Positions 1,675-62,187 of a stretch of 64,000 bases of DNA are shown here, piece by piece; position 1 is the first letter of the stretch; each line of letters opens with the position of its first letter. The notes beneath the pieces were generated by a model. That model did not search any database. It was not told where the DNA came from and saw nothing but the letters and a program-made list of their open reading frames with translations. The position numbers and the translations under genes are program-made. Where the stretch lies: positions 1 through 64,000 of the forward strand of contig CAMDBU010000008.1 in assembly GCA_945889495.1 (NCBI GenBank), written 5' to 3'. This stretch comes from Syntrophobacter sp. SbD2 (GTDB lineage Bacteria > Desulfobacterota > Binatia > UBA9968).

Positions 1675-1772
1675 TTAAGAATCTCCCGCTACGTGAATTG
1701 TTTGTCGTCATTCGAATCGGTCTCGGAATTTCTCCCGCCAAGGCGCAAAGGCGCCAAGGTCAGAGGGGGATT

Positions 1773-2795
1773 TCACCGGCCGTAAAAGCGCCGGGCGTTG
1801 TCGCCGAGGATGGCGGTCTTATGTTCGGTCTTGAGGTCGTTGCGCTCCAACACTTCGTCGATCTCTTCCATGCAGTTGCTCATCGATATTTCATGGGGGA
1901 AGTCCGACGCGAACATGAACGGTTTCGGACCGACGCGGTCGATGGCGTAGGCGAGCGCCTTTTCGTTGCCTTCGCAGCCGACGAAAATCCGATCGTCCTT
2001 GAAATAATCGATGGGGTGGCGCTTGAGTTTCAGGCCGCCATATTCCAACTCGCGTTCGAGGCGGTCGATGACCAGCGGTATCCACGCCGTGCCGCCTTCC
2101 ATGAAGCCGACGCGCAGTTTGGGAAAGCGGTCGAACACGCCGTCGACCATCATGCCGGTCATGGCGATGGCGAGGGGAAACGGCATGCCCAACGCGCGCG
2201 TCGCCGGGAAAACCGTGTAGCTGTTGAAGCCCAGGTTGATATAGCTGCCGCCATGGACGGCCATGACGCAATTTAATTTCTCCGCCTCTTCGTAGATCGG
2301 CCAGAACTCCTGGTGGCTGACATGGCGGGTGAGACCGTTGGACGGAATCATCGCGCCCATGAAGCCCAATTCTTTGACTGAGCGGCGCAGTTCGCTGACC
2401 GCATCGGGCACGTTTTGCATCGGGATCAAGGACACCGCTTGAAACTTATCGCTGCGTTTCAGATAGCGGGTGTGGATGTAATCGTTATACGCCTGGGCAT
2501 AGGCCAGCGCCCAGGTCGGATAGGCGACGTTGCCATAGGCCAAGCCGGCGGTGGGATAGAGCACCGTGTAGTCGGTGCCGGTCTTTTCTAAAAATTTTAA
2601 CCACTCTTCCGGCCCGGTGCTGGGATCGAAGGTGCCCGGCGTGCGCGGCGTGCCGTCGGCCGGAGTGTGAAAATTATCCAGGCTCGGAATCCAGTTCCTC
2701 GTGCCGCGGTTGTTATAGGGCGCCTTGACGAAGGTCAGGATCTCTTCGGCGTTCTCCATGACATGGCCGTCGGCGTCGACGTAATGATTTGGCAT
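1773..2795 (-). CDS. Amidohydrolase family 2
   Basis: 340 aa; YVDADGHVMEN, MAVHGG, FMFASDFPHEISM, LGDNARRFYGR. Confidence 0.9.
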   Translation of the reverse strand: MPNHYVDADGHVMENAEEILTFVKAPYNNRGTRNWIPSLDNFHTPADGTPRTPGTFDPSTGPEEWLKFLEKTGTDYTVLYPTAGLAYGNVAYPTWALAYAQAYNDYIHTRYLKRSDKFQAVSLIPMQNVPDAVSELRRSVKELGFMGAMIPSNGLTRHVSHQEFWPIYEEAEKLNCVMAVHGGSYINLGFNSYTVFPATRALGMPFPLAIAMTGMMVDGVFDRFPKLRVGFMEGGTAWIPLVIDRLERELEYGGLKLKRHPIDYFKDDRIFVGCEGNEKALAYAIDRVGPKPFMFASDFPHEISMSNCMEEIDEVLERNDLKTEHKTAILGDNARRFYGR

Positions 2796-2958
2796 AAAGC
2801 CTCCTTTGGAAATTGTTCGATTGCGGAAATGTATTCGCCCGTCTGGTTATATGGCGAGTGAGATCGGGGCGTCAAGCGCCAATGACCGCTAAGAAAATAT
2901 CTCGGTTCGTGCGCTCTCGTACCGCGTGAGGGATAGCTTTGTGGCGCTTGCCGGATCG

Positions 2959-3251
2959 CTAGGCGAGTCCCAGCCAGCTCCGCAAGGACTGATGCAAGCG
3001 ATCGGCATCCTTCGGCGACAATCGGCCGACGGTTTTCAAAGCTAGGTTTTGGTGAACCGTGTAAAGGCCGCGTTAAGTCCAGACGCCTTCCAGTCATCGA
3101 GCAGAAATTCGCCAGCGAGCAGCGCGGCTGTCTTGCTGGTTAAGGGAACGATAAAAATGTCTTGAGATGAATGCGCTGCGCTTACGACAACCGCAGGCCG
3201 AACCTTGGCGGCGGACAAATCCGAGAATGGATAGCGGACTAGTTGATGATG
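2959..3251 (-). pseudogene. Decayed MazF/PemK-like toxin
   Basis: Hand translation: LVRYPFSDLSAAKVRPAVVVSAAHSSQDIFIVPLTSKTAALLAGEFLLDDWKASGLN then a frame change to GLYTVHQNLALKTVGRLSPKDADRLHQSLRSWLGLA*; no usable in-frame start after the antitoxin stop. Confidence 0.75.
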
Positions 3252-3455
3252 TCATTCCTGGAGAAGCTGGCCATATACATCGTCCTCGGGATTATCCCAA
3301 ACCGCGTTGAGCGATGATTGGCTCGCCCCCAGCCAGAATTGGCTCTCTTCGTCAGTCATGAGTGTCACCAAAACTTGCGCGCCCTCGGGAAGGTCGATTT
3401 TTTCCAGTGGTTCGATTTTCCCATCGTGGATAAAGGCCCTGAGCGATTTCGCCAT
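3252..3455 (-). CDS. Small antitoxin-like protein (DUF104-like N-terminus)
   Basis: MAKSLRAFIHDGKIEPLEKIDLPEGAQVLVTLMTDEESQFWLGASQSSLNAVWDNPEDDVYGQLLQE; directly upstream of the toxin remnant. Confidence 0.75.
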   Translation of the reverse strand: MAKSLRAFIHDGKIEPLEKIDLPEGAQVLVTLMTDEESQFWLGASQSSLNAVWDNPEDDVYGQLLQE

Positions 3456-3768
3456 GACATGCTCCTTGTAACTGTACGAATCGGCAAACGCATTGATAGA
3501 TAATAGTAGTCCAAGCCGCGTGGCTGTGCAAAGCTCCATGAGGTTTCACGTTGCCTAGCAGACCGTGTCGCAATTCCGTTCATGGTTCGAGAACCTCACC
3601 ACGAACGGAATTGCTGGGTAGTGAATTCAGCTACTTCCCCGTTTGTCCTGAGGCTCTCGAAGGGCGAACGTGCGATTGCGACACAGTCTGTAGGCGGGAA
3701 CCGGGCAGAGCCATCGCGAAGCCAGAGTGCTATCACCCGATCCCAGGGGCAGATCCGATGGGTGGGCG

Positions 3769-4749
3769 CTACGGTTTTTTGTACAGTTGGTCGACGAAGC
3801 CTTCGCGTACCAGTCGGTCGATGAGCGAGTTGTCGGCGAAGGTCTCGATGGGTAGACCTTTTTTGCCCATCAGTTCCAAGCTCGCCGCCACTGCTTCGGC
3901 TTCGACGCGCGGCACTCGGTCGACGTATTTGGTCGCGTCGTTATAAATATCCTCGATGGCGCGGCTTTCCTTGAGCCGGCTGAAGTAGGCGATCGCTTTG
4001 ATGACGCGGCTTTTGTTATTCGGATCGCGTAGCGCGGCGACGCCTTCCAAGTAGGCGCGCATGATTTTCTCCAGCGTCTCCGGCGCGCGCCGTTGAAACT
4101 CGCGGGCGACTACCAGTTGGCCCATGGAGTATTGAATGCCGGAGTCGGCGAGCTCGACTAATATTCTATGCGGCGCATCGGTGCGCAGGGTCGCCAGCAC
4201 GGCGGCGTCGATCTGGCGGTGGCGGAAGGCTAGGGCGACTTCTAAAGTTCCGCCCAACTGGCGAATCGTCACGGCGTTTTCCAAACCGACGCGGCGCAAC
4301 AGGATGCGGGTCAAATTATCCGTGGTCGAGCCGAAGCGCGACACGCCGAAAGTTTTACCGCGCAGCTCTTCGACTTTCATCACCTCGGGCCGCGCCCACA
4401 GGCGCAAATAAGGCCGGTTGGCCAGGCTGGCGATGGCGACGATGGGCGCGCCGCCGAGAGCGGCGGCGATCACCGCGTTGGCGCCGGCGATGGCGCACTG
4501 GACATCGCCGCCGATCAACGCCGGCACCATCACGGGACTTGACGAGATGAAAACGAAATTGGCATCGACGCCGTATTTATTAAACGCGCCGACTTCCTGG
4601 GCCATCCACAGGCCGACGGCGGTAGGGCCGGTGCTGGAGTAGCCGAGGGTGAGTTTGTTTTTTTCCGCCGCGTTGGTCGGCGCGGATAGCAGCAGCGCTA
4701 TCAGAGCGGGCGCCACAGCATGGCCGAAACATTTCCATCGTCGTGCCAT
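3769..4749 (-). CDS. ABC transporter substrate-binding protein (NMT1/THI5-like)
   Basis: Signal peptide MARRWKCFGHAVAPALIALLLSAPTNAAE then LTLGYSSTGPTAVGLWMAQEVGAFNKYGVDANFVFI; the ORF extension to 4947 reads through a palindromic repeat. Confidence 0.88.
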   Translation of the reverse strand: MARRWKCFGHAVAPALIALLLSAPTNAAEKNKLTLGYSSTGPTAVGLWMAQEVGAFNKYGVDANFVFISSSPVMVPALIGGDVQCAIAGANAVIAAALGGAPIVAIASLANRPYLRLWARPEVMKVEELRGKTFGVSRFGSTTDNLTRILLRRVGLENAVTIRQLGGTLEVALAFRHRQIDAAVLATLRTDAPHRILVELADSGIQYSMGQLVVAREFQRRAPETLEKIMRAYLEGVAALRDPNNKSRVIKAIAYFSRLKESRAIEDIYNDATKYVDRVPRVEAEAVAASLELMGKKGLPIETFADNSLIDRLVREGFVDQLYKKP

Positions 4750-4811
4750 TCGAATCTCCTCGGGAAATAACCTTTGGTAGTCTGCCTCGCTAATGACACT
4801 GACTGCCAATC

Positions 4812-4892
4812 CGTCATACCCGCGAAAGCGGGTATCCAGGTTAATTTGCTGCCGTCTAAATCTGGATTCCCGCCTGCGCGGGAATGACGGAC
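4812..4892. repeat. Composite palindrome dimer, copy 1
   Basis: CATACCCGCGAAAGCGGGTATCCAGGTTAATTT...ATCTGGATTCCCGCCTGCGCGGGAATGACGG; two hairpins separated by a short spacer. Confidence 0.85.
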
Positions 4893-4950
4893 GATGGGTC
4901 GAACCCAAGCTAATATTTTCAAACCCACTCGGCCGGTTGGCTGTCAAACC

Positions 4951-5952
4951 TCACCGGTAAACGCTGTCGATAAAACCGCTGCTTTCCAATTTGCGGATGA
5001 AGCGGTCGTCGAAAAATAGTTTTGGCTCTTGGTCTTTGGCTTTGGGATTTCTTTCGGCGATCTCGTCCACCACCGATCTGACATTGTCCATCGTGGGTAG
5101 TGGAACCTTCAGTAGGTACTTAGCGATTTGCACGTCGTAGGTTTCGCTCAATAGGTCGGGGTCGGCGGTGCGCAGGTATTTGCGCAGGACGGTGTAGCTC
5201 AAGGCGCGGTCTTTTTTCATCAGGGCGCTGGCCTCGACGACCGCCGACAGATAGCGCCGCACCAGCTCGGGATCGTTGCGGATGAGTTCGCCGCGGGTGG
5301 AGACGCCGTTGGCGGCGTAGGCGATGTTGAGGGTCGGCAGATGGAGCATTAACCGATTGCCGAGCTTGATCGCGCGGGAGGTTTGCGGATAGCCGAACAC
5401 GCCGCCGTGGATGCGCCCGCCTTGCATGGCGCCGACGATCCATTCGCCGGCTCCGATCTCGGCGATGGCGACGTCTTTGCCGTCGGCCAGGCCGAAGTGG
5501 CGCAGCGCGATGCGCGCGCCGGTGTGTAACGAGGTGCCGTAGCGGCTGATGCCGATGGTTTTGCCGCGCAGCTGCTCGGGTTTTTCTATCTCGGGGCGCA
5601 CCACCAGATTGAGCACCAGGGTCCCGACCAAGGTGGCGACGATTTTGACGTCGAGGCCGCCGATGGCGGCGCCGGCGGTGGTGCCGCCGGCGATGTGGAC
5701 GAAGTCGACTTCGCGCGCGGCTAGCGTGGTGATGCCTTGCAGGCCGCTGGGCATGGCGACGACTTCGACTTGCAGGCCATGCTTGGCGAAAATTCCTGAC
5801 TCATGGGCCGCCCAGGCTGGCGACATGCTGCCGGAGATGCTGGTGATGGCGGCACGAATCCTGCGCAGACCGGTTTGCTCGGCGGCATGGGTTATGCCGG
5901 CACAGAGGAAGAACAGGGCAACCAATATTCGCACCAGCCTGCGTCTTGGCAT
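4951..5952 (-). CDS. ABC transporter substrate-binding protein (NMT1/THI5-like)
   Basis: 333 aa; signal peptide; ISGSMSPAWAAHESGIFAKHGLQVEVVAMPSGLQGITTLAAREVDFVHIAGG. Confidence 0.9.
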   Translation of the reverse strand: MPRRRLVRILVALFFLCAGITHAAEQTGLRRIRAAITSISGSMSPAWAAHESGIFAKHGLQVEVVAMPSGLQGITTLAAREVDFVHIAGGTTAGAAIGGLDVKIVATLVGTLVLNLVVRPEIEKPEQLRGKTIGISRYGTSLHTGARIALRHFGLADGKDVAIAEIGAGEWIVGAMQGGRIHGGVFGYPQTSRAIKLGNRLMLHLPTLNIAYAANGVSTRGELIRNDPELVRRYLSAVVEASALMKKDRALSYTVLRKYLRTADPDLLSETYDVQIAKYLLKVPLPTMDNVRSVVDEIAERNPKAKDQEPKLFFDDRFIRKLESSGFIDSVYR

Positions 5953-6005
5953 CGTAAACCTCAGATGGATTCGCTGGCTGTTGCTATAACCCAGATCGGC
6001 AAAAT

Positions 6006-6416
6006 TTACATCGGCATCTTGGGAAACTTCGGCAGGGCCGGATTCATGTGATCCCAGGGCTGGGCGCTCGACACGTAGACATCCATGGCAGGTTGATACT
6101 GCTTCGGGTCATCTAGGCTACCCGCGGTGATGATCGCCAGATCCGGCATGCTGTTCGACTTGCCAATCAGTCGTGCACCGCAGTCTGGGCAGAAGCCACG
6201 GCTAACGGTGTTGCCGCTGTCGGCTTTCATATCGTGATATTTCACATTGCCGGTGACCTTGAGCGTCGCTGCTGGGATGCCGACTGCCGCTTCATAGGCG
6301 CTGCCGGTGGCCTTCTGGCAGTCGCGACAGTGGCAGTTGCCCATGAAGATCGGATCGGCGGTGGCTTCATAACGGACCTTGCCGCACAGACATCCGCCGG
6401 TAAATTTCGTTGCCAT
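6006..6416 (-). CDS. GFA family protein (CENP-V/GFA fold)
   Basis: GGCLCGKVRYEA...GNCHCRDCQKATGSAY...RGFCPDCGARL Cys-rich GFA signature. Confidence 0.92.
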   Translation of the reverse strand: MATKFTGGCLCGKVRYEATADPIFMGNCHCRDCQKATGSAYEAAVGIPAATLKVTGNVKYHDMKADSGNTVSRGFCPDCGARLIGKSNSMPDLAIITAGSLDDPKQYQPAMDVYVSSAQPWDHMNPALPKFPKMPM

Positions 6417-6451
6417 GGTTTGCTCCTTCGGGTTTGGATTCGTTTCTATAT

Positions 6452-7114
6452 CTAGGCTTTCCAGTGCGGTGGGTAGGTGCGCTGGTAGTTGGGCAGCGCT
6501 TCGATGCGGCCGGCCCAGCGCGCGAGGTTGGGAAAATATTGCGCCAGCGGCAGCCAGTTGAAGTTAAACGGCTGGGCCGCTTCTTTCGATGCCGCGCGCA
6601 GGATTAGCTGTATCATCGGAAAGATCGCGATGTCGGCGGCGCTGATGGTTTCGCCCACCAGCCAAACTCGGCGCGCCAATTTGTCGTCGAGGGCTTTGAG
6701 TTCTTGGCGAATGGTTGCCGCGGCCTGCTGGATCTCCTCGACCTGGTCCAAACCTTTGCCGAAGAACATCGGCCGCACCACTTTGTCACCCGCGCTGGTG
6801 AAATAGGACTCGCACTCGGAGATCGTCTGCCAGATCAGTCCGCTTTCCTCCGCCGTCGTGCCGAACAGCGGCGGGGCTGGATACTTGCGGTCGAGGTAGC
6901 TCATCATCGCCAGCGACTCGTAAACCACGAAGTCGCCGTCCTTCAACGTCGGCACCTTGCCGCGCGGGTTGAGTTGCAAATAGTCCGGCGCTTTATGCTC
7001 GCCCTTGGAGAATTCCAACAGCTTTGACTGGTACTCCAAGCCTTTGACTTCCAGCGTCAGCATGACGCGCCAGGCAAACGGACTGCCGCTGCCCCAGTAG
7101 AGTTCGATGGCCAT
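6452..7114 (-). CDS. Glutathione S-transferase family protein
   Basis: MAIELYWGSGSPFAWRVMLTLEVKGLEYQSKLLEFSKGEHKAPDYLQLNPRGKVPTLKDGDFVVYESLAMMSYLDRKYP. Confidence 0.92.
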   Translation of the reverse strand: MAIELYWGSGSPFAWRVMLTLEVKGLEYQSKLLEFSKGEHKAPDYLQLNPRGKVPTLKDGDFVVYESLAMMSYLDRKYPAPPLFGTTAEESGLIWQTISECESYFTSAGDKVVRPMFFGKGLDQVEEIQQAAATIRQELKALDDKLARRVWLVGETISAADIAIFPMIQLILRAASKEAAQPFNFNWLPLAQYFPNLARWAGRIEALPNYQRTYPPHWKA

Positions 7115-7481
7115 GGTAAGGGTCTCCTGTCCCGTCAACTTATCGAACAATGATCGCACTGTGAACAGGCACCGGAAAAAAACCGCATACTCGATACTGA
7201 GCGGCTGTGCGGCGACAAATTCACGCCAAAGGTGGTTGGGGCTGTGGCGGCGCTGGTTGCCGAGGGCGCGGCGCCGATCAGTTCAATCCTGCGCGAAGTA
7301 GGTGTGAACGTTGCTCGTATATTGAATATACCAGACCAGCGATATTGGATAGACGAGCAACCGCGACAATTGACAACTTATTGATTGCAGGAGTAATTTC
7401 GAATTGATGATTGTTGGATATCCAATATACGAGATCTGTTCACTCAATGGTTGGCGCTCCGGAACAATCATCTCAAATTAA

Positions 7482-8351: not shown

Positions 8352-8528
8352 CCATTGCATTCACCAGACGGCAAGAAGCGCGAGCGGCGCTGACGCGGCA
8401 AGCTTTGGTGGGCCGCTGGTGATGCAGGTCGTTAACCCCCAGGATTGAATTGATTTCTCCATCAACTCAAATCTAACCAATCTCTTTTTCTTTCGCCGCG
8501 CTTTGCTTCGGTGATGCGTTTCGCGACT

Positions 8529-8603
8529 ACGCCTCGTCCAATTCCGGATAATGGTGGAAGATGCCGTGCTCGTTGAACGCCAATCGGCGCGGCGATCTTA
8601 GAC
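8529..8603 (-). pseudogene. Remnant C-terminal tail of a GST paralogue
   Basis: Minus-strand translation LRSPRRLAFNEHGIFHHYPELDEA*, close to the C-terminus of the 9286 gene (LASPRRLAFNENGIFRHYPELDEA*); no upstream GST body. Confidence 0.8.
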
Positions 8604-8649
8604 TGGCGCAGACGCGGATTTTTCCCGTGCTATCAAGTATTTCTGGACG

Positions 8650-9153: not shown

Positions 9154-9285
9154 GGGCGCCTCCGTGGGATTCTTAACTTGCGCTGGTGTCACATTGGCAC
9201 CGCGATATTTGTCACTCCGTAAATTCAGTGCCAACCAATCATTTTTGCTGCGCCCGGTTTTCGCGTCAGCATTGCCGACCGCTAC

Positions 9286-10008: not shown

Positions 10009-10076
10009 TTTGGGCTCCTTCGTTTTCGTTTTCGTGATCGTGGCTCGTGCTCGTTTTCGGAATCGTCGCAATTTAT

Positions 10077-13519: not shown

Positions 13520-13597
13520 TCACCACGAAGGCACGAAGAGGGTAGGGGCGAAAAATCTTTCGCCCCTACTATAACCCTGCGTGCCTTCGTGGTGAAA
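13520..13597. repeat. Nested inverted repeat: CACGAAG dialect enclosing a GTAGGGGCGA hairpin
   Basis: TCACCACGAAGGCACGAAG ... GTGCCTTCGTGGTGA enclosing GTAGGGGCGAAAAATCTTTCGCCCCTAC (13542-13569). Confidence 0.9.
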
Positions 13598-15928: not shown

Positions 15929-15970
15929 AGTGGCGTGGACGGTGGACCGGTAGCGTTTAGTTGCTCGGAT

Positions 15971-16071
<101 letters not shown>

Positions 16072-16114
16072 CAATCCCCTTCCGAACTCCTCGCTGCCAC
16101 CGCTAGTTCACTTT

Positions 16115-16498: not shown

Positions 16499-16530
16499 GT
16501 GGATAATGGTCTCGTTTGGCGACAACGCGT

Positions 16531-16642
<112 letters not shown>

Positions 16643-18873: not shown

Positions 18874-18875
18874 GC

Positions 18876-24823: not shown

Positions 24824-24902
24824 GTTGTTCCCGCGTAGGCGGGAATCCAGGTTTGTGCTGCGCCGAATTAACCTGGATACCCGCTTTCGCGGGTATGTCG
24901 GA
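24824..24902. repeat. Composite palindrome dimer, copy 2 (opposite orientation)
   Basis: GTTCCCGCGTAGGCGGGAATCCAGGTTTGTGCTGCGCCGAATTAACCTGGATACCCGCTTTCGCGGGTATGTC. Confidence 0.85.
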
Positions 24903-25050: not shown

Positions 25051-26823
25051 CTAAATCGCCGCGGATGGGCCGGCGCGCATGTCGTGGTGGACGCCGAAGC
25101 GGCGGCCGAAGTAGCGCACCAGCAGGGCGCCGCTGACGGTGAAGAAAATAATAAAGATGCTGACGATGCTCGCCGCTTCGCGGTTGCCGACGGCGTTGGA
25201 GGATAGCTCCAAGGCCATCAACGACAGCGTCATGGTGTCGCGGGAAGCGAGCAGGATAATGCTGCTAGTGGCCCCCGAGGCGGTGACGAAATTCATCACC
25301 GCGACCAACACCAGAGTGGGCATCAACAGCGGCAGCCAGATTTTAAAATAAGTTCTGATCCAGCCGGCGCCGGAGACCCGTGCGGCTTCTTCCATGTCGG
25401 CGCCGACCTGGACCAGCACGCCTTTCATGATATTGACGCCGGTGGTTTTGCCTTGCAGGACGACGACGATGATCAGCGCCCAAATAGTCCCGAAGAGCGC
25501 GTTCAAGCCCGGCGTGCCGATAAATACCCAGAGGAGCCCGAGGCCGGCGAGGATGCCGGGGATGGCGCCGGAGCCCCAGATCATCAGATCGAGCGCGCCG
25601 CGGCCGGGCAGCCGTGTGCGCACCAGAATATAAGCCAGTACGGAAAAAATCAGCGGACTGACCAACGCCGCGGTGAGCGCCAGGGTCAAGGTCGTGCGCA
25701 GCGCTTTGACGAACACCGGGTCCGACAACACCAAGCGCCAATGTTCGAGCGTGAAGCCCAGGACGAAGTAGCCGATGCGCTGCATGAAGCTGCCGAGGAT
25801 GAGAATCACCATGGGGCCAAAGGTCAACAGGGTGAGAAACACCGCCAGTAGGGCGAAGGCCAGGTAGTTGCCCTTGCCGAGATCGATCAGGCCTGGGCGA
25901 AAGCTGCCGGTGATGGTGGTGTAGCGGCGCCGCTCCAAGATCCAGCGTTGCAAGGGGATGATCAAGACGATCATCAAGAGCGTAATGCTCGCCAGCACGG
26001 TGGCCTCGCCGTAGTTGGGGATGGCGTTACGCACCAGCGCATAGACTTTGGTCGAATAAACGTAGAAGCCAAATGGTACGCCCAGCAAATATTCGGTCTC
26101 GAAGGATTGAAACACCCGCAGCAGTTGGAGGGCGAACACCATGATCATCGGCGACACCATCAATGGCAGCGTGACTTTGAATAGCGTGCGCAAATTGCTC
26201 GCGCCGCCGACCCGGGCGGCTTCTTCGAGCGTCGAATCCATGTTGCGAAAGGCTGGGGTCATGAGCATGACCTTGATCGAGATGCCATGGCCCATCAGGT
26301 TGGCCCAGACGATGCCGGGCACGCTGAAAATATTGAACGGCCCCTGGTCCAAGCCGAAGAGGTTTTTCAAACCGACGTTGATCATGCCGATGTCGGGGTC
26401 GAGCAGCGTGATCCAAGCGATGGTGGTGGGCAGGCTCGGCACCATGTAGGAAACCCAGAAGAGAAATTCCAAGGTTCGGCTGCACGGGATCTTGGTCCGC
26501 GCCAAGAGCCAGGCGATGGCCACGCCGATGGGAAAACTGATGCCCACGGTGAGCGACCAGATGAGCAGCGAATTGCCCAGCGATTGGATCAGTCCGGGGC
26601 GCTGAAAGGCATTGACCCAATGGTCGATACCGAAACGGCGCGGCTCGACAAACCAATCGTTGGCAGCGTTGAAGCTGTTGATCAATAACAACAGCACCGG
26701 CCACAGCAGCAGGTAGCCGAGCACGATCAGCACCATGGCCATCAGGAAATGGCCGCGGCTAAGGCGCGGCGGGCTGATCGTGATCGGGACGCTCAGGGGA
26801 GTTATGGTTGGCGATTGTTCCAC
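25051..26823 (-). CDS. ABC transporter permease (Fe3+/thiamine-type, two fused membrane domains)
   Basis: 590 aa; two copies of the permease EAA-type loop (EEAARVGGASNLRTLFKVTLPLM and EEAARVSGAGWIRTYFKIWLPLL). Confidence 0.93.
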   Translation of the reverse strand: MEQSPTITPLSVPITISPPRLSRGHFLMAMVLIVLGYLLLWPVLLLLINSFNAANDWFVEPRRFGIDHWVNAFQRPGLIQSLGNSLLIWSLTVGISFPIGVAIAWLLARTKIPCSRTLEFLFWVSYMVPSLPTTIAWITLLDPDIGMINVGLKNLFGLDQGPFNIFSVPGIVWANLMGHGISIKVMLMTPAFRNMDSTLEEAARVGGASNLRTLFKVTLPLMVSPMIMVFALQLLRVFQSFETEYLLGVPFGFYVYSTKVYALVRNAIPNYGEATVLASITLLMIVLIIPLQRWILERRRYTTITGSFRPGLIDLGKGNYLAFALLAVFLTLLTFGPMVILILGSFMQRIGYFVLGFTLEHWRLVLSDPVFVKALRTTLTLALTAALVSPLIFSVLAYILVRTRLPGRGALDLMIWGSGAIPGILAGLGLLWVFIGTPGLNALFGTIWALIIVVVLQGKTTGVNIMKGVLVQVGADMEEAARVSGAGWIRTYFKIWLPLLMPTLVLVAVMNFVTASGATSSIILLASRDTMTLSLMALELSSNAVGNREAASIVSIFIIFFTVSGALLVRYFGRRFGVHHDMRAGPSAAI

Positions 26824-26847
26824 GGTTGGAGTTACAGCTTGGTGCTG

Positions 26848-26932
26848 ATTTTCGTGATCGTGTTCGTGCTCGTGCTCGGAAATATCGCAGCGGGATTCTT
26901 ACGATCACGAGCCACGAACACGATCACGATTA
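26848..26932. repeat. TCGTGATCGTG-dialect inverted repeat between SBP and permease genes
   Basis: TTCGTGATCGTGTTCGTGCTCGTGCTCGGA...CGATCACGAGCCACGAACACGATCACGA. Confidence 0.88.
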
Positions 26933-30538: not shown

Positions 30539-30548
30539 AGTAAACTCC

Positions 30549-30607
30549 TGGTCTAGGGTTTGGCGTCTAGCGTCTGGAGTTTAACGCCAGACCCTAGACG
30601 CTAGAAC
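30549..30607. repeat. GTCTAG/GTCTGG-dialect inverted repeat
   Basis: GGTCTAGGGTTTGGCGTCTAGCGTCTGGAGTTTAACGCCAGACCCTAGACGCTAGAACC. Confidence 0.8.
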
Positions 30608-30614
30608 CTAAACG

Positions 30615-31769: not shown

Positions 31770-31851
31770 GGAATGAGGTCCTTTCGAGTGCGAACTTGGT
31801 AGCTGAAATTTGTATTCAGTTTGGCCTGGGGAGTCAAGCATATGTAATAGA

Positions 31852-31936
31852 CATGAGGCGCGAGGCTTGAGGCATGAGCCGGACCGGATTTCGGACTATT
31901 CTCTTACTCAAGCCTCGTGCCTCATGCCTCATGCCT
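31852..31936. repeat. ATGAGGC/CTTGAGGC-dialect inverted repeat
   Basis: CATGAGGCGCGAGGCTTGAGGCATGAG...TTTCGGA...CAAGCCTCGTGCCTCATGCCTCATG. Confidence 0.9.
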
Positions 31937-31997
31937 TACTTCATTGCACTCAACCGCACTGTCGATATATGTTGCGCCGATAACGAAAGGAACCAAC

Positions 31998-32948: not shown

Positions 32949-32999
32949 GGAAGAAGGCAATAGGCAATAGGCAATAGTGATGAACCGCGACAATCCGAC

Positions 33000-33039: not shown

Positions 33040-33603
33040 ATGACCGTTCCACCCGACGTAAGACGCCGACGTTCGATTCGACTGCAAGATTATGATTATT
33101 CATTGGCTGGGGCATATTTCATTACGATGGTGACTAAAGACCGCCAATGTTTATTTGGTGAAGTTGTTGAAGCTGAAATGCGATTGAACGACTGGGGCCG
33201 TATCGTCCAGGATGAATGGGACAAGTCAGCGCAGATACGAAAAGAAATCGAGTTGGATGCGTTCGTCATTATGCCAAATCACGTTCACGGTATTATCGCG
33301 ATCGCTGAACCGGTGGGGAGGGCGACCGGCCGGTCGCCCCTTGTCGGTCCTGGGAAACGGTCCGTCGGTGCGTTTGTCGGTGGGTTCAAGGCTGCGGTCA
33401 CTCAACGGATCAATGGCGCCCGTGGCACGCCCGGTGTATCCGTGTGGCAGCGCAACTACTTCGAGCATGTGATACGCAACGAGGATTCGTTGCATCGCAT
33501 TCGCCAGTATATTACCGATAACCCAATGCGCTGGGAATTTGACCGTGAGAATCCTGCGGCGCAGCATCCTGAAGCGAATTATACCTGGCGTGACGAAAGG
33601 TAG
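33040..33603 (+). CDS. REP-associated tyrosine transposase-like (RAYT/Y1_Tnp, IS200-like HUH)
   Basis: RRRSIRLQDYDYSLAGAYFITMVTKDRQCLFG...AFVIMPNHVHGIIAI...VWQRNYFEHVIRNEDSLHRIRQYITDNPMRW. Confidence 0.92.
   Translation: MTVPPDVRRRRSIRLQDYDYSLAGAYFITMVTKDRQCLFGEVVEAEMRLNDWGRIVQDEWDKSAQIRKEIELDAFVIMPNHVHGIIAIAEPVGRATGRSPLVGPGKRSVGAFVGGFKAAVTQRINGARGTPGVSVWQRNYFEHVIRNEDSLHRIRQYITDNPMRWEFDRENPAAQHPEANYTWRDER
33317..33340 (+). repeat. REP-like palindrome inside the RAYT coding sequence
   Basis: GGAGGGCGACCGGCCGGTCGCCCC, read in frame as GRATGRSP. Confidence 0.88.
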
Positions 33604-33623
33604 GGGCGACCGGCTGGTCGCCC
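33600..33623 (+). repeat. REP-like palindrome at the 3' end of the RAYT gene
   Basis: GTAG followed by GGGCGACCGGCTGGTCGCCC. Confidence 0.9.
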
Positions 33624-33646
33624 TCTTGGAACGATCGGAGAGGCCG

Positions 33647-38454: not shown

Positions 38455-38527
38455 TTCACCACGAAGACACGAAGAGCGCGAAGGGTTCGGAGAAGTTATT
38501 GTTACGAACTTCGTGCCTTCGTGGTGA
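38455..38527. repeat. CACGAAG-dialect inverted repeat with apical TTCGGA
   Basis: TTCACCACGAAGACACGAAGAGCGCGAAGGGTTCGGAGAAG...CTTCGTGCCTTCGTGGTGA. Confidence 0.92.
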
Positions 38528-43468: not shown

Positions 43469-43519
43469 GGTTGAAAGTTTCGAGTTGCGGGTTTTCAGTT
43501 TCGAGTTTAAGGAGAAATT

Positions 43520-49663: not shown

Positions 49664-49769
49664 CTCGGAGTATCTCTCGCAAAGGCGCTAAGCTCGCAAA
49701 GGTCGGAGTAGAGATGTTTTCCGAACTTGGCGTCTTTGCGCCTTTGCGAGATAAATATCCGGATCCGAG
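49664..49769. repeat. GCGCAAAG-dialect inverted repeat with inner and outer TCGGA boxes
   Basis: CTCGGAGTATCTCTCGCAAAGGCGC...GGTCGGA...TCCGAACTTGGCG...GCGCCTTTGCGAGATAAATATCCGGATCCGAG. Confidence 0.9.
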
Positions 49770-52504: not shown

Positions 52505-52664
52505 GTCGGATATACCTCTCGCCAAGGCGCAAAGGCGCCAAGTTCGGAGAAGATGAAGATAAGCTTGAAATCATTGCCAAGGTTTTGCGATCCGATTCTC
52601 CGACCTTTGCGGCTTGGCGCTCCTTCGACTTCGCTCAGGACATGCTTTGCGGGAGATATTCCGA
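52505..52664. repeat. GCGCAAAG-dialect inverted repeat interrupted by a CTTCGAC...CTCAGGAC unit
   Basis: GTCGGATATACCTCTCGCCAAGGCGCAAAGGCGCCAAGTTCGGA...TCTCCGACCTTTGCGGCTTGGCG[CTCCTTCGACTTCGCTCAGGACATG]CTTTGCGGGAGATATTCCGA. Confidence 0.85.
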
Positions 52665-53385: not shown

Positions 53386-53453
53386 CTTGCATATATCCCG
53401 CTACCCCCCCTTTTTCAAAGGGGGAAGCCCGGCGCGGCTTTAGGAAGGTTGCC

Positions 53454-54507: not shown

Positions 54508-54586
54508 AGGACGCCTGATCTATCGCGATTTGTTCATTGAGTACACATGCTTCTTTCCCCTAGAGTTTTTTGGTTCAGTCATTTCA

Positions 54587-55264: not shown

Positions 55265-55396
55265 TGATGTGTCCTCCTCCGCTGTTTGTGGGTTTATCGT
55301 CCAGCCTAAATTCTGGGATGGTCGAATATCACAAGTCCGGGGGGGCAAGCGACTTGCAAAAGCCTGACAGGATGGCGTGATCGTGGAATTGACGAG

Positions 55397-56650
55397 CTAC
55401 CGCGGCCTCGGCCGCACCCAAGATTTTCCCAAGAGGCTATAAAAGATCCCCGACAGAAAAAACATCGCGACCAAGCCCCAGAGCATGGGCTCGTAGGTCT
55501 GGTAGCGATCCCAGATCGCGCCGGTGATGACCGGGCCGGCGACGCTGCCCCAGACATAAAACATGCTCATGTAGCCGCGAATCTTGGCGAAGTGTTTGCG
55601 GCCGAAGATGTCGCCGACCATGGCCCAGGCGACTGGGTAGGTGGATTCCACCGTGGTGAAGAGCAGCGTGAACAGCAGTAGCGGCGCCATCGACGTGCCG
55701 AAGATCGGCAGCAGGATCGAGCCGCCGGCGATAAATAGGATCGCCGAGATCATCCGCGGCTTGTTCATCGAGTCGGCGAGCCAGCCGATTAAAACCGTCG
55801 ACGTGAAACCGAGAAAGGCGAAGGCGCTCAAGAGCAACGTCGCTTGCTGCGGGCTCATGCCTTTCCAGATCATCATCGGGATGAAGTGCGTGGAGATCGC
55901 GTGGTAGGACGCGTTGCGCACGGCGGCGCCGAACACCAGCGCCCAAAAGGCAAACGAGCGCATCGCTTGGCGCGGCGTGATCTCGATTTCGCTAATCGCC
56001 TCAGCCGAGGTGGTGCGATCGTGAAACGCTTGCTGAGTCTCGCCGTCGGGCAAAAGTCCCATGCTCTCGGGCGAACGGCGAATGGTGAGGCAGAGCGGGA
56101 TGCCAAAAACTAGAAACGAAACTCCGGCAAACGCCGCGCCCCAGCGCCATCCCCAGCTATGGACGATCATGCTCAAGATCGGCGCGATCAAGACCCCGCC
56201 GAGACCGTAGGCGGCGCTGTTGACGGTCATGGCGCGGGCGCGCAGCCGGATGAACCAGGTGTTGATCAGCGTCATCGGCGCGTGCATGAAGCCGCCCGAG
56301 TGCGTGAGCGAGATCAACACGGTGTAGACCAGGACAAAGCTCCAATAGTTTTGGATTTGCGAAAGCAGCAGATAGCCGACGCCCATCATGATCACGGTGG
56401 CGAGCATCACCGGCCGCGGCCCGTAGCGGTCGAGCAGATGGCCGACGATAGGTCCCTCAATGGCGCCCTCGGCGCGGGCCAAGGAAAACGCGAAGGAAGT
56501 CGCCGTGCGACTGAGATTTAACTCCTGGCTGAGCGGCAAGAAAAAAACCGTGAAGCCATAACTATGCAGCCCAGCGCCCAACAAACGCACCGCCGCCGAC
56601 GCGCCGACCATATGCCAGCCGTAGAATAGACCGGAAAACTTTTTCAACAT
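55397..56650 (-). CDS. MFS transporter (paralogue of 59327..60580)
   Basis: 417 aa; FYGWHMVGASAAVRLLGAGLHSYGFTVFFLPLSQELNLSRTATSFAFSLARAEGAIEGPIVGHLLDRYG. Confidence 0.92.
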   Translation of the reverse strand: MLKKFSGLFYGWHMVGASAAVRLLGAGLHSYGFTVFFLPLSQELNLSRTATSFAFSLARAEGAIEGPIVGHLLDRYGPRPVMLATVIMMGVGYLLLSQIQNYWSFVLVYTVLISLTHSGGFMHAPMTLINTWFIRLRARAMTVNSAAYGLGGVLIAPILSMIVHSWGWRWGAAFAGVSFLVFGIPLCLTIRRSPESMGLLPDGETQQAFHDRTTSAEAISEIEITPRQAMRSFAFWALVFGAAVRNASYHAISTHFIPMMIWKGMSPQQATLLLSAFAFLGFTSTVLIGWLADSMNKPRMISAILFIAGGSILLPIFGTSMAPLLLFTLLFTTVESTYPVAWAMVGDIFGRKHFAKIRGYMSMFYVWGSVAGPVITGAIWDRYQTYEPMLWGLVAMFFLSGIFYSLLGKSWVRPRPR

Positions 56651-56686
56651 TATTCTTTATCGATGAATTTAGGCGGGAAGTGAGCA

Positions 56687-56774
56687 AATGGATAATGGAT
56701 AATTGACAATGGATAATGTCGGACCGAAAATCCGATTCCGAAAATTATCCATTATCCATTTTCAATTATCCATT
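56687..56774. repeat. GGATAAT-dialect inverted repeat with TCGGA boxes
   Basis: AATGGATAATGGATAATTGACAATGGATAATGTCGGA...TTCCGAAAATTATCCATTATCCATTTTCAATTATCCATTG. Confidence 0.92.
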
Positions 56775-56775
56775 G

Positions 56776-57855
56776 TTATTCCGCTTCGCCGTTCTCCGCG
56801 GCTTTGAGGCGGCGCTGGCGCACGGCGTCGGCGAAGGTGTCGATCAAGGCGCGGCTGTCTTCCCAGCCGACGCAGGCGTCGGTGATGCTCTGGCCGTAGA
56901 CCAGCGCTTTACCGGGGAGGAGATCTTGGCGGCCGGCTTTGAGGTGGCTTTCGATCATGACGCCGAAGATACGCGGATCGCCGGCGGCGATCTGTGCGGC
57001 GACATCGCGGCCGACGCCGACCTGCTTGGCCGGCTCCTTGCCGCTGTTGCCATGGCTGCAATCGATCATGATGCGCGCGGCGATGCCGGACTCGGCCAGG
57101 CTTTTGGCCGCGGTGTCGACGTTGGCGGCGTCGTAGTTGGGCACTTTGCCGCCGCGCAAAATGACGTGGCAGTCTTCGTTGCCGAGAGTAGAAACGATGG
57201 CCGAATGGCCGTCCTTGGTTACGGAGAGAAAATGATGCGGCGCCTGGGCGGCGCGGATGGCGTCCAGGGCGATGCGCACGTTGCCGTCGGTGCCGTTTTT
57301 GAAACCGACCGGACAGGACAATCCGGAAGCGAGCTCGCGGTGCACCTGGCTTTCGGTGGTGCGCGCGCCGATGGCGCCCCAGGAGACTAGATCGGCGGTG
57401 TACTGCGGCGTGATCATGTCGAGGAATTCGCAGCCGGCGGGCATGCCCGACTCGTTCAACTCGCGCAGCAACTGCCGGCCGATGCGCAGGCCTTCGTTGA
57501 TTTGAAAACTGCCGTCGAGGTTGGGATCGTTGATCAGGCCTTTCCAGCCCACGGTGGTACGCGGCTTTTCGAAATAGACGCGCATGACGATCAATAGATC
57601 GGCGGAAGAGCGCTCCTTGGCTTCCTTCAAGCGCGCGGCGTATTCTTTGGCCGCTTTGACGTCGTGGATCGAGCAGGGGCCCATGATTACCAGCAAGCGG
57701 TCGTCGGCGCCGTGCAATATTCTATGAATATCGCGGCGCGCTTCGAACACGGTCTGGGCAGCCTTTTCGCCGATGGGAAAATCGTCGAGCAGGCGGGCCG
57801 GTGGCTGTAACTCTTTGATCTCTTTAATTCTCAGGTCGTCGGTTTGATAGGTCAT
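56776..57855 (-). CDS. 3-deoxy-7-phosphoheptulonate synthase, class I (AroF/AroG/AroH type)
   Basis: VIMGPCSIHDVKAAKEYAARL...MRVYFEKPRTTVGWKGLINDPNLDGSFQINEGLRIGRQLL...MIDCSHGNSGK. Confidence 0.96.
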   Translation of the reverse strand: MTYQTDDLRIKEIKELQPPARLLDDFPIGEKAAQTVFEARRDIHRILHGADDRLLVIMGPCSIHDVKAAKEYAARLKEAKERSSADLLIVMRVYFEKPRTTVGWKGLINDPNLDGSFQINEGLRIGRQLLRELNESGMPAGCEFLDMITPQYTADLVSWGAIGARTTESQVHRELASGLSCPVGFKNGTDGNVRIALDAIRAAQAPHHFLSVTKDGHSAIVSTLGNEDCHVILRGGKVPNYDAANVDTAAKSLAESGIAARIMIDCSHGNSGKEPAKQVGVGRDVAAQIAAGDPRIFGVMIESHLKAGRQDLLPGKALVYGQSITDACVGWEDSRALIDTFADAVRQRRLKAAENGEAE

Positions 57856-57938
57856 GTCAATTCTTTTCGCGTTTCGATGCGCCGATTATAGACGATCCTT
57901 GGCGGAAATCTATCGGGGTAAACCGGCGTGGCCGCGGG

Positions 57939-59162
57939 CTATTTTTCCAGGGTTTCGCGGGCGACCCAGCCGAGCAAGAGTGCTGCGACGATCAAGAGCG
58001 GCGCGTAGGCGAGAAACGGCACGCCGGGATTGAACTTGTCGGCGAGCAAGCCGCCGAAGAGCGGCGCACTGACGCCGCCGATCTCGGCCATAGTGCGACG
58101 CAAGGCCTGCAAACGGCCGCGGGCGTGCACCGGGACGACGTCGAAGGTGGATGTGGCCAGCGAACCGAGGGATAGGCCGTTGGCGACGCCGAGAAAAGAC
58201 AGCAAGATCGCCAGCTGAAGAAACGAGTCGGCGAAGGGGATGAGCAAAAACGCGATGGCCGGTATTCCCGTGCTCGGCACGGTGGCCCACTTGCGGCCGA
58301 CTTTGTCGATGACGAAGCCGGCCGGCAGGATCATGATGAAAACCGACAGGCCGGAGATGGTAAACAAGAGACCGATCTCCTTGGGCGACATGTGCAGCAT
58401 GCCGCTGGCGAAGATCGGCACGATGCTCTGGGTGGTGACGCGATGGGCGAAGCTCGTGAAGGTGGCGAGCACCAGCACGATGTAGGTGGCGCGCAACTCG
58501 GGGCTAATCTCGTAATATAAATCTCTGATGCTGCGCAGACGAGCGGCGATGGCGGCGAAGTTCCAGCCAGTTCTCGTTGTGCTCTTAGTGGTTGCTGGCG
58601 CCGGATGCTGGCGCGCTTCGATTTTCCAGCCGATCAGCGTCGACAGGCCGGCGCAGCCGGCGTAGGCCAAGAACACCGCGCGAAAGCCGATATGTTCGGT
58701 AAGTAGGCCGCCGATGAGCGGGCCGAAGGCGAGGCCAAGATAATTGATGCCGTGAAAGCCGCTGAGCACCCGGCCGCGCTGGTCGGCGCGCACCAGATCG
58801 ACGCCGGCGACTTCCCGGGCGATCACCCAGATGCTGTCGGCGATGCCGATGAAAAATACCGGGATCAAAATAAGCGTGAACCAGGGCATGAGCGCGGCGA
58901 GGATCGCCGAGGCGCAAGCGATGAGCGGTCCGGCGATGAGCGCGGCGCGGGCGCCGAAGCGGTCGAGGACCAAACCGCTAATCGGCATGCCGGCGAAGCG
59001 GCCCACCGACAGCGCGGTGATCAACTGCGCCGCGGTGCCCGGCGTGATGGCAAAATGTTTGGCCAGCACCGGGATCGTCGGCACCACCATGGCCCACATG
59101 CCGGCCATCAGCGTGCTGGTGTAGAGCGTGATCAGGCTACGGCTGGTGGGAGTGAGCGGCAT
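57939..59162 (-). CDS. MFS transporter
   Basis: MPLTPTSRSLITLYTSTLMAGMWAMVVPTIPVLAKHFAITPGTAAQLITALSVGRFAGMPISGLVLDRFGARAALI. Confidence 0.92.
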   Translation of the reverse strand: MPLTPTSRSLITLYTSTLMAGMWAMVVPTIPVLAKHFAITPGTAAQLITALSVGRFAGMPISGLVLDRFGARAALIAGPLIACASAILAALMPWFTLILIPVFFIGIADSIWVIAREVAGVDLVRADQRGRVLSGFHGINYLGLAFGPLIGGLLTEHIGFRAVFLAYAGCAGLSTLIGWKIEARQHPAPATTKSTTRTGWNFAAIAARLRSIRDLYYEISPELRATYIVLVLATFTSFAHRVTTQSIVPIFASGMLHMSPKEIGLLFTISGLSVFIMILPAGFVIDKVGRKWATVPSTGIPAIAFLLIPFADSFLQLAILLSFLGVANGLSLGSLATSTFDVVPVHARGRLQALRRTMAEIGGVSAPLFGGLLADKFNPGVPFLAYAPLLIVAALLLGWVARETLEK

Positions 59163-59196
59163 GGGTGTCGTTACAAAGATGCTGGGACTAGGAATT

Positions 59197-59320
59197 GTCT
59201 CTCGCAAAGGCGCAAAGGCGCAAAGTTCTGAGGGGGAAGATAAATCTTCTTACGAATTTTCTTCACTTGAATTTTTCCGACCTTTGCGAGCTTTGCGCTT
59301 TTGCGAGAGATAATCCGAAT
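59197..59320. repeat. GCGCAAAG-dialect inverted repeat
   Basis: GTCTCTCGCAAAGGCGCAAAGGCGCAAAGTTCTGAG...TTTTCCGACCTTTGCGAGCTTTGCGCTTTTGCGAGAGATAATCCGAA. Confidence 0.9.
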
Positions 59321-59326
59321 TCCCTC

Positions 59327-60580
59327 TCAGCGCGCCCTACCGGTGGCGCGTTGCCAGGAATTGCTCAGGCTCGCGAAGAAGATGCCGGCGCTGGCAAAGA
59401 CCCCAATGAGCGCCCAGAGAAGCGGCTGATAGGTGTGCCACTGGTCCCATACCGCGCCGGCCAACACCGGTCCCAAGACGCCGCCCCAGGTGTAAAACAG
59501 TCCCATGTAACCGCGAATCTTGGCGAAGTGTTTGCGGCCGAACAGATCGCCGGCGATGGCCCAGCCGACGGTGTAGGTCGCCTCGACGCCGGCGAATAGC
59601 ATGGTGAACAGCGCCATCAGCCAAAAGGAGCTGGTGTAAAGCGGCAATAACATGGCGAGCGCGGCGCTAAACAAAATCAGCGCGCAGAGCCGCGGCTTGT
59701 GCGCGTGGTCGGCGTACCAGCCAAAGATCAGCGTCGAGGCCATGCCGAGAAAGGCGAAGGCGCTGAGTAGCCAGGCGGCTTCGGATTGGCTCAAGCCTTT
59801 CCAAACCATCAGCGGAATGAAATGCACCGACACCGCGTGATAGGAGGCGTTGCGCACGCCGTTGGCGAGCACTGAGCCCCAGAAGGCAAATGACCGTAAC
59901 GCTTGCGCCAGGGTGACTTCGGTTTCGGCGAACACGGGTTGGCTGCTGTCCGCGACATCCGGCGGCGCGTCGCCGTCGGGCAGGAGTCCCATGCTTTCGG
60001 GCGAGCGCCGGATGGTTAAACAAATCGGGATGCCGACGACCAAGAAAGTTATCCCAGCCACCGCCGCGCCCCAGCGCCAACCCCAGGCTTGGACGATTAG
60101 ACTTAGCAGCGGCGCGATCACCACGCCGCCGAGGCCGAAGGCTGCGCTGTTCAATGTGATCGCGCGGGCGCGCTGGCGGATGAACCAGGTGTTGACCAAG
60201 ATCATCGGCGCGTGCATGAAGCCGCCGGCGTGGACCAAGGATATGACGCCGAGATAGACGATGAGAAAGCTCGCGTAGCTGTCGACCTGCGAAAGGATCA
60301 AATAACCGACGCCCATCAGTAGCGCCGCCGCAATCATGATCGGCTTGGCGCCGTAGCGGTCGAGCAAGTGACCGACGATGGGCCCTTCGATGGCGCCCTC
60401 GGCGCGGGCCAAGGAAAACGCCAGCGAGGTTGCGGTGCGATTGATGTTCAGATCTTGGCTGAGTGGCAAAAAGAAAACCGTGAAACCGAAACTGTGGAGT
60501 CCGGCACCGAGCACGCGTAGCGCCGAGGCGGCGCCGACCATGCGCCAGCCGTAGTAGAAGTTACTCGGCAGCTTAAACAA
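59327..60580 (-). CDS. MFS transporter (paralogue of 55397..56650)
   Basis: 417 aa; FYYGWRMVGAASALRVLGAGLHSFGFTVFFLPLSQDLNINRTATSLAFSLARAEGAIEGPIVGHLLDRYG. Confidence 0.92.
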   Translation of the reverse strand: MFKLPSNFYYGWRMVGAASALRVLGAGLHSFGFTVFFLPLSQDLNINRTATSLAFSLARAEGAIEGPIVGHLLDRYGAKPIMIAAALLMGVGYLILSQVDSYASFLIVYLGVISLVHAGGFMHAPMILVNTWFIRQRARAITLNSAAFGLGGVVIAPLLSLIVQAWGWRWGAAVAGITFLVVGIPICLTIRRSPESMGLLPDGDAPPDVADSSQPVFAETEVTLAQALRSFAFWGSVLANGVRNASYHAVSVHFIPLMVWKGLSQSEAAWLLSAFAFLGMASTLIFGWYADHAHKPRLCALILFSAALAMLLPLYTSSFWLMALFTMLFAGVEATYTVGWAIAGDLFGRKHFAKIRGYMGLFYTWGGVLGPVLAGAVWDQWHTYQPLLWALIGVFASAGIFFASLSNSWQRATGRAR

Positions 60581-60634
60581 GGCACGGCTTTCTAGTCATC
60601 GCGGCAAGCTGAACAAGTTGCGCTGGGCGCGGAA

Positions 60635-62026
60635 TTAAAACTCGGCGTTGCCCGGCGTGCGCGGGAAGGGGATGACGTCGCGAATATTTTTTAGCCCGGT
60701 CAAATACATCATCATCCGTTCGAGTCCCAAGCCGAAGCCGGCGTGGGGCACCGAGCCGTAGCGGCGCAGGTCGAGATACCACCAGTAAGGTTTTTCGTCC
60801 AAGCCGCTGTCGTGCAGTCTCTGAGTCAGCACATCATGGCGCTCTTCGCGCTGACTCCCTCCAATAATTTCGCCCACCCGCGGCACCAGCACGTCCATGG
60901 CGCGGACGGTTTTGCCGTCGTCGTTGACGCGCATGTAAAAGGCTTTGATGTCTTTCGGATAGTCGGTGACGATCACCGGTTTTTTGAAAATCTCTTCGGA
61001 GAGAAAGCGCTCATGCTCGGTCTGCAAGTCGCAGCCCCAGGTGACGGGGAACTCCCAAGTCTTGCCTGACTTTTGCAATTCCGAAACCGCGTCGGTGTAG
61101 GTGATATGGCCGAAGTCCGACTGGGCGACATGTTCGAGAGTCGCCAACACCGACTTCTCGATGAACTGGTTGAAGAATTCCAGATCCTCGCGGCAATGTT
61201 CGAGCACGTAGCGAATCGTGTATTTCAAAAAATCTTCGGCCAGCCGCATGTTGTCTTCGATCTCGTAAAAAGCCATCTCAGGCTCGACCATCCAGAACTC
61301 GGCCAGGTGGCGCGGCGTGTTGCTGTTCTCGGCGCGGAAGGTCGGGCCGAAGGTGTAGACTTTGGAAAACGCCAGGGCGAAGATTTCGCCTTCGAGCTGG
61401 CCGCTGACGGTGAGGAACGCCGGCTTGCCGAAGAAATCTTTTTGCCAATCGATCTTGCCGTCGTCGGTGCGCGGTGGCTGGTGCATGTTCAAGGTCGACA
61501 CGGCGAACATCTGGCCGGCGCCTTCGCAGTCCGATGTGGTGACGATGGGCGTGTGCACATAGATGAACTCGCGCTCCTGAAAAAACATATGGATCGCGTG
61601 GGTCAGCGCGTTGCGCAAACGAAAGGCCGCGCCGAAGGTGTTGCTACGAACTCTGAGGTGCGAAATCTCGCGGAGAAACTCTAAGGTGTGGCCTTTTTTC
61701 TGCAACGGGTAGGTCTGCGGATCGGCGCCGCCGTAGATGTGAATGGTCGCGACCTTCAGCTCCACCGCTTGTCCCTTGGCCGGCGACTCGACCAAGGTGC
61801 CGGTGGCCGCTAAGCTGCTGCCGGTGGTGATCTGTTTGAGGGTCTCGTCGGGGATCGTGCCGGCGTCGACCACCAGTTGCATGCTCTTGAAGCGCGAACC
61901 GTCGTTGAGCTCGATGAAGGTGACGCCCTTGGAATCGCGCCGCGAGCGCACCCAACCGCGTAGCGTGAGTTCGCTGCCGACCGGAGCGCTGAACGCCGCT
62001 TTGACCGAGAGGAAATTTGCCGTCAT
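60635..62026 (-). CDS. asnS: Asparaginyl-tRNA synthetase
   Basis: [25 protein letters not shown]...[21 protein letters not shown]...[29 protein letters not shown]...[34 protein letters not shown]. Confidence 0.96.
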
Positions 62027-62111
62027 AGGGGTCAAGTAACGGCAATTGGCCGAGGATGTCAACCGGGAATTGGCGGCGTGCGGATCGTGGAAAGAAGAAG
62101 AGGAAGATTAC

Positions 62112-62187
62112 TTACCACAGAGGGCACAGAGATCACAGAGGTTCGGAAAAAAGTTTCTCTGTGGTCTCTGTGAGCTCTGTGGTGAAA
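62112..62187. repeat. CACAGAG-dialect inverted repeat, copy 3
   Basis: TTACCACAGAGGGCACAGAGATCACAGAGGTTCGGAAAAAAGTTTCTCTGTGGTCTCTGTGAGCTCTGTGGTGAAA. Confidence 0.92.

What the first reader, a model, noticed from the sequence alone, without database searches (positions are those of the whole stretch)
1704..62187. One hairpin architecture in about ten unrelated sequence dialects, with TCGGA boxes at arm ends
Intergenic inverted repeats of roughly 60-160 bp share one plan: each arm is made of short imperfect direct repeats, and the arms are inverted. The repeat word differs: CACAGAG (15971, 16531, 62112), CACGAAG (13520, 24952, 38455), GCGCAAAG (about 1735, 49664, 52505, 59197), GGATAAT (56687), ATGAGGC (31852), TCGTGATCG (10022, 26848), GTCTAG/GTCTGG (30549), CTTCGAC..GCTCAGGAC (41207, 51473), TTTCGAG (43472), GCAATAG x3 (32955). 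Across many of them a (T)TCGGA/TCCGA box sits where arm meets loop or at the outer border (62142, 16596, 38486, 49703/49720, 52543/52599, 59276, 31890, 56718/56736, 26876, 10056, 51473, 41207). This suggests a shared machinery recognising the border box and topology while arm sequence is free to change. I know of no described system with these properties.
Basis: partly seen in the sequence, partly recalled or inferred. Interest (0 to 1): 0.85.

Follow-up and report, generated by a model that had tools for sequence, protein, structure and literature searches.

The report
Tandem-word hairpins swapping dialects in place
The genome carries dozens of small DNA hairpins just after genes, whose arms are short repeated words; in related species the hairpin often stays in the same gap while its word is replaced, and the shared TTCGGA motif is a feature of this lineage's hairpin tips rather than a universal signal.

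Summary
The pattern is real. In 1.23 Mb of the same genome I found 76 intergenic inverted repeats whose arms are tandem 6-10-mers. TCGGA, read inward, is the top 5-mer of 1024 in their loops (52, expected 9.1; 11 outward) and outer flanks (33, expected 7.5; 3 outward). It is not in the loops of other inverted repeats there. The loop box crosses dialects; the outer box is limited to the CACAGAG/CACGAAG/CGCAAAG group.

CACGAAG-arm hairpins occur in about ten phyla without TCGGA, and genomes sampled outside the family have their own loops. The arm word is the widespread part; the box is lineage-specific.

New observation: orthologous intergenic regions of congeners often carry same-architecture hairpins in different dialects. 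Co-occupancy exceeds chance (12 of 152 regions, 4.65 expected, p=0.0004), and the dialect differs in 9 of those 12.

Best reading: REPIN/BIME-like non-autonomous hairpins adjoining stop codons, with fast turnover at conserved sites and word-number slippage. The mobiliser is unknown: Y1 transposases here are not flanked by these hairpins and do not track their number. Two unrelated genomes show recently amplified families.

The parts
15967..16077 (.). CACAGAG-word hairpin, box in right inner arm end and TCGGA at left outer edge
16530..16642 (.). CACAGAG-word hairpin with TTCGGA/TCCGAA as basal pair and TCCGAA box in loop
62114..62183 (.). CACAGAG-word hairpin with GTTCGGA after left arm
13520..13595 (.). 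CACGAAG-word hairpin with a GTAG-type palindrome (GTAGGGGCGAAA..TTTCGCCCCTAC) in its loop
24956..25029 (.). degenerate CACGAAG-word hairpin, no box
38456..38527 (.). CACGAAG-word hairpin with GTTCGGA in loop
1732..1759 (.). single CGCAAAG-word array preceded by TCGGA, no inverted partner
49675..49751 (.). CGCAAAG-word hairpin with TCGGA/TCCGA inside and outside
52516..52655 (.). CGCAAAG-word hairpin whose right arm is interrupted by a CTTCGAC..GCTCAGGAC element
52621..52644 (.). nested TCCTTCGACTTCGCTCAGGACATG insertion in the right arm of the preceding element
59184..59324 (.). CGCAAAG-word hairpin with TCCGA at right inner and outer edges
26852..26929 (.). TCGTGATCG-word hairpin with CTCGGAA in loop; congeners carry TTTCGAG, GGATCGGAC and GTTCAAG words in the same gap
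10019..10062 (.). single TCGTG-word array followed by TTTCGGA
30551..30613 (.). GTCTAGC-word hairpin; congeners G001 and G002 carry CACGAAG, G003 carries TTGAACGA words in the same gap
31849..31929 (.). TGAGGC-word hairpin with TTTCGGA in loop; congener G001 carries a TGGAGTG hairpin in the same gap
56687..56774 (.). TGGATAA-word hairpin with TCGGA/TCCGA in loop; congeners G001 and G003 carry TGCAAAG- and GGCAAAA-type words in the same gap
43477..43508 (.). single TTTCGAG array; same word in G001, other words in G002 and G003
32956..32978 (.). single GCAATAG x3 array; GCAATAG words also present in G001

Best explanation
These are non-autonomous, probably mobile hairpin elements of the REPIN/BIME kind that sit beside stop codons. 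Each is a near-palindrome: an arm of 2-4 short words, a lineage-specific apical helix (TTCGGA..TCCGAA in this genus) around a small AT-rich loop, and the inverted arm. Shown here: the architecture, the inward apical box, the location next to stop codons, lineage-specific loops, word-number variation among near-identical copies in another genome, and conserved occupancy of orthologous gaps with replacement of the word. Inferred: a trans-acting factor, probably one that recognises hairpin structure, copies these elements; tandem words gain and lose units by slippage; gaps that hold a hairpin are re-occupied by another dialect, either because they are preferred targets or because a hairpin after the gene is useful and any one will do. 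The TTCGGA box would be the apex of this lineage's elements, shared among its dialects by exchange or by a common mobiliser.
For: 76 tandem-arm repeats with an inward box, controls negative in loops. Median 18 bp from a stop codon; 5 of 75 in divergent gaps, which hold 21% of intergenic bases. 121 CACCACRRAGNNCACRRAG sites in the genome, 0 for the reversed pattern; patchy among 58 relatives (0 to 222 per genome). G001 and G003 hairpins share a recognisable consensus loop; G061 and G062 hold near-identical families, with 7-9-nt word-number differences between copies and a precise right end (...GGGCTATGTTCT) in G061. Orthologous gaps own/G001: both occupied 12 of 152, permutation expectation 4.65, p=0.0004, word different in 9. 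Empty sites of 3-4 bp in G001 at two occupied gaps. Not terminator-like: T-run at 4 of 76, against 10 of 22 short-loop repeats.
Against: No mobiliser found. No target-site duplication or insertion intermediate was seen. In this genome the loops of different copies are mostly not alike, unlike recent transposition. Selection for a hairpin with ordinary sequence turnover could give part of the conserved occupancy, because these genes are 73-90% identical and intergenic sites are near saturation. Only 12 doubly occupied gaps were compared.
Confidence: 0.5

Rival explanations
1. One reading: one machinery recognises the TCGGA box and the hairpin topology, and the arms are free to change.
For: Within this genus the inward box is shared by the CACnnAG/CGCAAAG group and, more weakly, by the pooled other dialects.
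Against: Same arms without the box in about ten phyla and in relatives of another family; the outer box is absent in most dialects; the loop box is absent from about half of the non-CACnnAG/CGCAAAG hairpins.
Confidence: 0.15
2. RNA-level elements: hairpins after stop codons protect mRNA ends or recruit an RNA-binding protein. Selection keeps a hairpin at the site while its sequence turns over; the apical TTCGGA helix is the protein site.
For: Stop-codon adjacency and depletion from divergent gaps; very stable folds; conserved occupancy with changed sequence.
Against: No orientation bias relative to the adjoining gene (own 7 same/3 opposite, G001 14/12). Spacer bases between words do not pair beyond chance in either genome of this genus. 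Many words are shared with distant phyla, which selection for structure alone does not predict.
Confidence: 0.15
3. RAYT/Y1 (IS200/IS605-type) transposases mobilise them as classical REPINs.
For: Anatomy close to REPINs; three Y1_Tnp genes in this genome.
Against: None of the three Y1 loci is flanked by a tandem-word hairpin. Y1 number does not track hairpin number: G009 has 17 Y1 and 0 sites; G001 has 2 Y1 and 199 sites.
Confidence: 0.1
4. No trans-acting factor: replication slippage and template switching turn chance palindromes into tandem-word hairpins.
For: Word-number slippage between copies is seen. Word identity is matched between the two arms (own 1.00 against 0.51 expected, G001 0.96 against 0.65), while the spacers are not complementary.
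Against: Template switching would also copy the spacers. The same words recur at about a hundred loci per genome and across phyla. Near-identical families exist.
Confidence: 0.1

Closest known systems
REPINs (REP doublets forming hairpins) with RAYTs, PMC3116915
   Same: Two inverted conserved arms, a variable spacer, a large hairpin, intergenic, high copy, lineage-specific types, singlets that look like remnants
   Different: Arms here are tandem 7-9-mers rather than one palindromic 16-mer; no GTAG tag; no adjoining RAYT; word replaced at orthologous sites
BIMEs and GTAG-/CGTC-tagged REPs, PMC3733652
   Same: Mosaics of small palindromes in intergenic DNA. The same genomes also hold GTAGGGGCG and CGTCAT..GTATGACG palindromes that look like these two superfamilies; some of the former sit in loops of the tandem-word hairpins
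   Different: Tandem-word hairpins carry neither tag
Heptameric GGGAATC repeats of Xanthomonas and GGGGAYT of Nostoc, PMC4692102
   Same: Heptamer arrays in intergenic DNA, in Xanthomonas often paired as inverted repeats
   Different: One G-rich word with quadruplex potential; no box; no word replacement described in the passages read
TAACTGA direct repeats of Beggiatoaceae, Cyanobacteria and Bacteroidetes, PMC4679880
   Same: One heptamer word shared by distant phyla, patchy, no known transfer mechanism
   Different: Direct arrays just upstream of start codons, with one inverted case; here inverted pairs next to stop codons
Cyanobacterial STRR heptamers and small dispersed repeats (recalled; primary papers not held)
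   Same: Short tandem heptamers and very small mobile repeats
   Different: Hairpin pairing and word replacement were not checked against these papers

Membership tests
REPIN/RAYT | two conserved sequences in inverted orientation around a spacer, able to form a hairpin | tested here: met
REPIN/RAYT | arm is a palindromic REP with a GTAG end | tested here: not met
   arms are tandem words without GTAG at the border
REPIN/RAYT | RAYT gene flanked by the same sequence | tested here: not met
   no tandem-word hairpin within about 1.5 kb of the three Y1_Tnp genes; flanks may be cut by contig ends
MITE | multi-copy element with precise ends and target-site duplication | tested here: inconclusive
   precise right end in G061, no duplication seen; ends not definable in this genus
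BIME (mosaic of small palindromes) | modules combined in different orders at different loci | tested here: met
   in G061 only; nested and loop insertions in this genus
Intrinsic terminator | short-loop GC-rich stem followed by a T-run | tested here: not met
   T-run at 4 of 76 tandem hairpins, loops mostly long
Known Rfam RNA | match above gathering score | tested here: not met
   0 matches in the window

The most novel reading that the evidence does not exclude
Intergenic hairpin sites act as inherited slots. Box-flanked arm cassettes are exchanged in place through the shared TTCGGA apex, so a gap keeps a hairpin while its word is overwritten by another word from the genome's repertoire.
Probability: 0.15. 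Interest if true: 0.88.

Novelty: new variant of a known kind. Interest (0 to 1): 0.62.

Why it matters
If it holds, positions of small hairpins after genes are conserved while their sequences are replaced wholesale. Sequence-based comparison would miss this kind of turnover, and it separates 'a hairpin is needed here' from 'this element inserted here'. It also gives a large, testable set of words shared across phyla for which no mobiliser is known.

Tried and rejected
RAYT mobilisation: Y1_Tnp loci and copy numbers do not fit. Intrinsic terminators: few T-runs. Rfam RNA: none. RNA-strand polarity: no orientation bias. Full covariation of arms: words match between arms but spacers do not. The first occupancy test with a strict detector gave only OR 4.9, p=0.03. 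My hand reading of single-occupied gaps suggested more shared sites but is biased towards finding partners, so I report the uniform detector, scored with length-stratified permutation. Full-text searches for the words themselves returned no paper on these hairpins; the library lacks most subscription journals.

Full report
Setting. The window is contig 8 (1-64000) of a 5.64-Mb draft genome in 239 contigs. Congener G003 appears to be the public record JAERMN01, 'Deltaproteobacteria bacterium isolate CoA_1_bin.89', because a hairpin at G003:C96:1730-1785 has the same coordinates as a hit in that record. The abundance of NMT1- and TctC-type binding proteins reminded me of Binatia, which I did not test. 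I read 1.23 Mb of this genome and 1.26 Mb of congener G001 as stretches, called genes with a hexamer model, and searched the gaps.

Is it there? Yes. The coordinates and boxes are as stated, within 1 bp. Inverted repeats of score >=32 number 107, against 0 in shuffled gaps; 76 of those scoring >=24 have tandem-word arms. Word periods are mostly 9, 8 and 7. In the window, four of the listed items are single arrays without an inverted partner, and the CTTCGAC type is a different element.

The box. Reading each arm inward, TCGGA is the leading 5-mer in loops and outer flanks of tandem-arm repeats; the outward reading is rare. Markov simulation by class shows the loop box in the CACnnAG/CGCAAAG group (z 10.5 here, 15.0 in G001) and in the pooled other dialects (6.5, 5.6). 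The outer box is confined to the first group (8.7, 6.4 against 1.8, -0.9). Non-tandem repeats of this genome show no loop enrichment; those of G001 show a weak one (z 3.1). CCCCTTTG-type repeats have it in 0 of 13 loops. The inner boxes are complementary and form an apical helix, TTCGGA..TCCGAA, around an AT-rich loop; both are present in 15 of 76 and 22 of 90 hairpins.

Elsewhere. Their loops carry no TCGGA except those of the congener record. Within the family, G010 and G017 keep TTTCGGA on one side only; G025, of another family, has GAAATYAGATTG; and three genomes from other groups (G058, G059, G062) have loops of their own, nearly uniform in G062. TGGAGT hairpins in G061 exist in 39 pattern matches, mostly with GGGGCGCC at the apex.

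Word replacement in place. At gap 30539-30614 this genome has GTCTAGC words, G001 and G002 have CACGAAG, and G003 has TTGAACGA. At 26743-26929 the four congeners have four words. At 31770-31997 it is TGAGGC against TGGAGTG. At 56651-56775 there are three words, with G001 showing a graded series TGCAAAG-TGCAGAA-TGAAGAA-TGGATAA. These were first noticed by eye in the window, so I tested 152 orthologous gaps with G001 using one detector: both 12, here only 14, G001 only 10, neither 116 (Fisher OR 9.9, p=1e-5; length-stratified permutation mean 4.65, p=0.0004). Four of the twelve lie in the window where the pattern was first noticed. Of the twelve, two share a word (C12:58413, C13:37812), one pair is of other repeat types (41200), and nine differ, one of them between related words. 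Several empty sites exist.

Location and evolution. Hairpins lie a median 18 bp from a stop codon and avoid divergent gaps. They lack T-runs and gene-relative orientation. The two arms match in word identity, but the 2-nt spacers do not pair beyond chance in this genus; a slight excess appears in the mixed set of other loci (p=0.04). In G061, near-identical copies differ by whole words, end exactly at ...GGGCTATGTTCT, and form part of a mosaic with other palindromes. In G062 similarity extends roughly 45-55 bp beyond the arms.

Mechanism. I favour REPIN/BIME-like non-autonomous hairpins with rapid turnover at gaps that tolerate or favour a hairpin. Mobility is inferred from copy number, amplified families elsewhere, patchiness and empty sites; the factor is unknown. 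Y1 transposases present here are not linked to these hairpins. Whether turnover reflects targeting, selection or cassette exchange through the shared apex is open.

Known relatives. REPINs, GTAG/CGTC REPs, Xanthomonas heptamer pairs and TAACTGA repeats cover parts of this anatomy. I found no description of the combination or of word replacement at orthologous sites, within an open-access library that lacks most subscription journals.

Noticed in passing
24830-24893 and many loci, e.g. C13:43686-43763: High-copy palindromes CGTCATACCCGCGAAAGCGGGTATCCAGG that look like CGTC-tagged REPs
   Followed up: partly
13546-13570; 33318-33341 and 33602-33625: GTAGGGGCGA-type palindromes, some inside loops of tandem-word hairpins, in line with GTAG-tagged REPs
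   Followed up: partly
L002 (C22:35063-35392) and flank 2892-3012: A Y1 transposase gene near an inverted repeat GGGGTCAAATCTGC, similar to the terminal repeats reported for RAYT-like genes that lack REPs
   Followed up: no
G061 loci L350-L372: Mosaic element of repeated CGGGATCCCGAG..CTCGGG hairpins, a TGGAGT hairpin and a terminal AGAACA..TGTTCT hairpin, with a sharp right end
   Followed up: partly
33040-33603: Open frame between two GTAGGGGCGACCGG palindromes, also present in G001; it looks like a candidate transposase with its own repeats, but it was not among the three Y1_Tnp matches and was not tested further
   Followed up: no
53386-53453; G001 IGRs: CCCCTTTGAAAAAGGGGGA..GGGGGATTT repeats without the box, common in G001
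   Followed up: no
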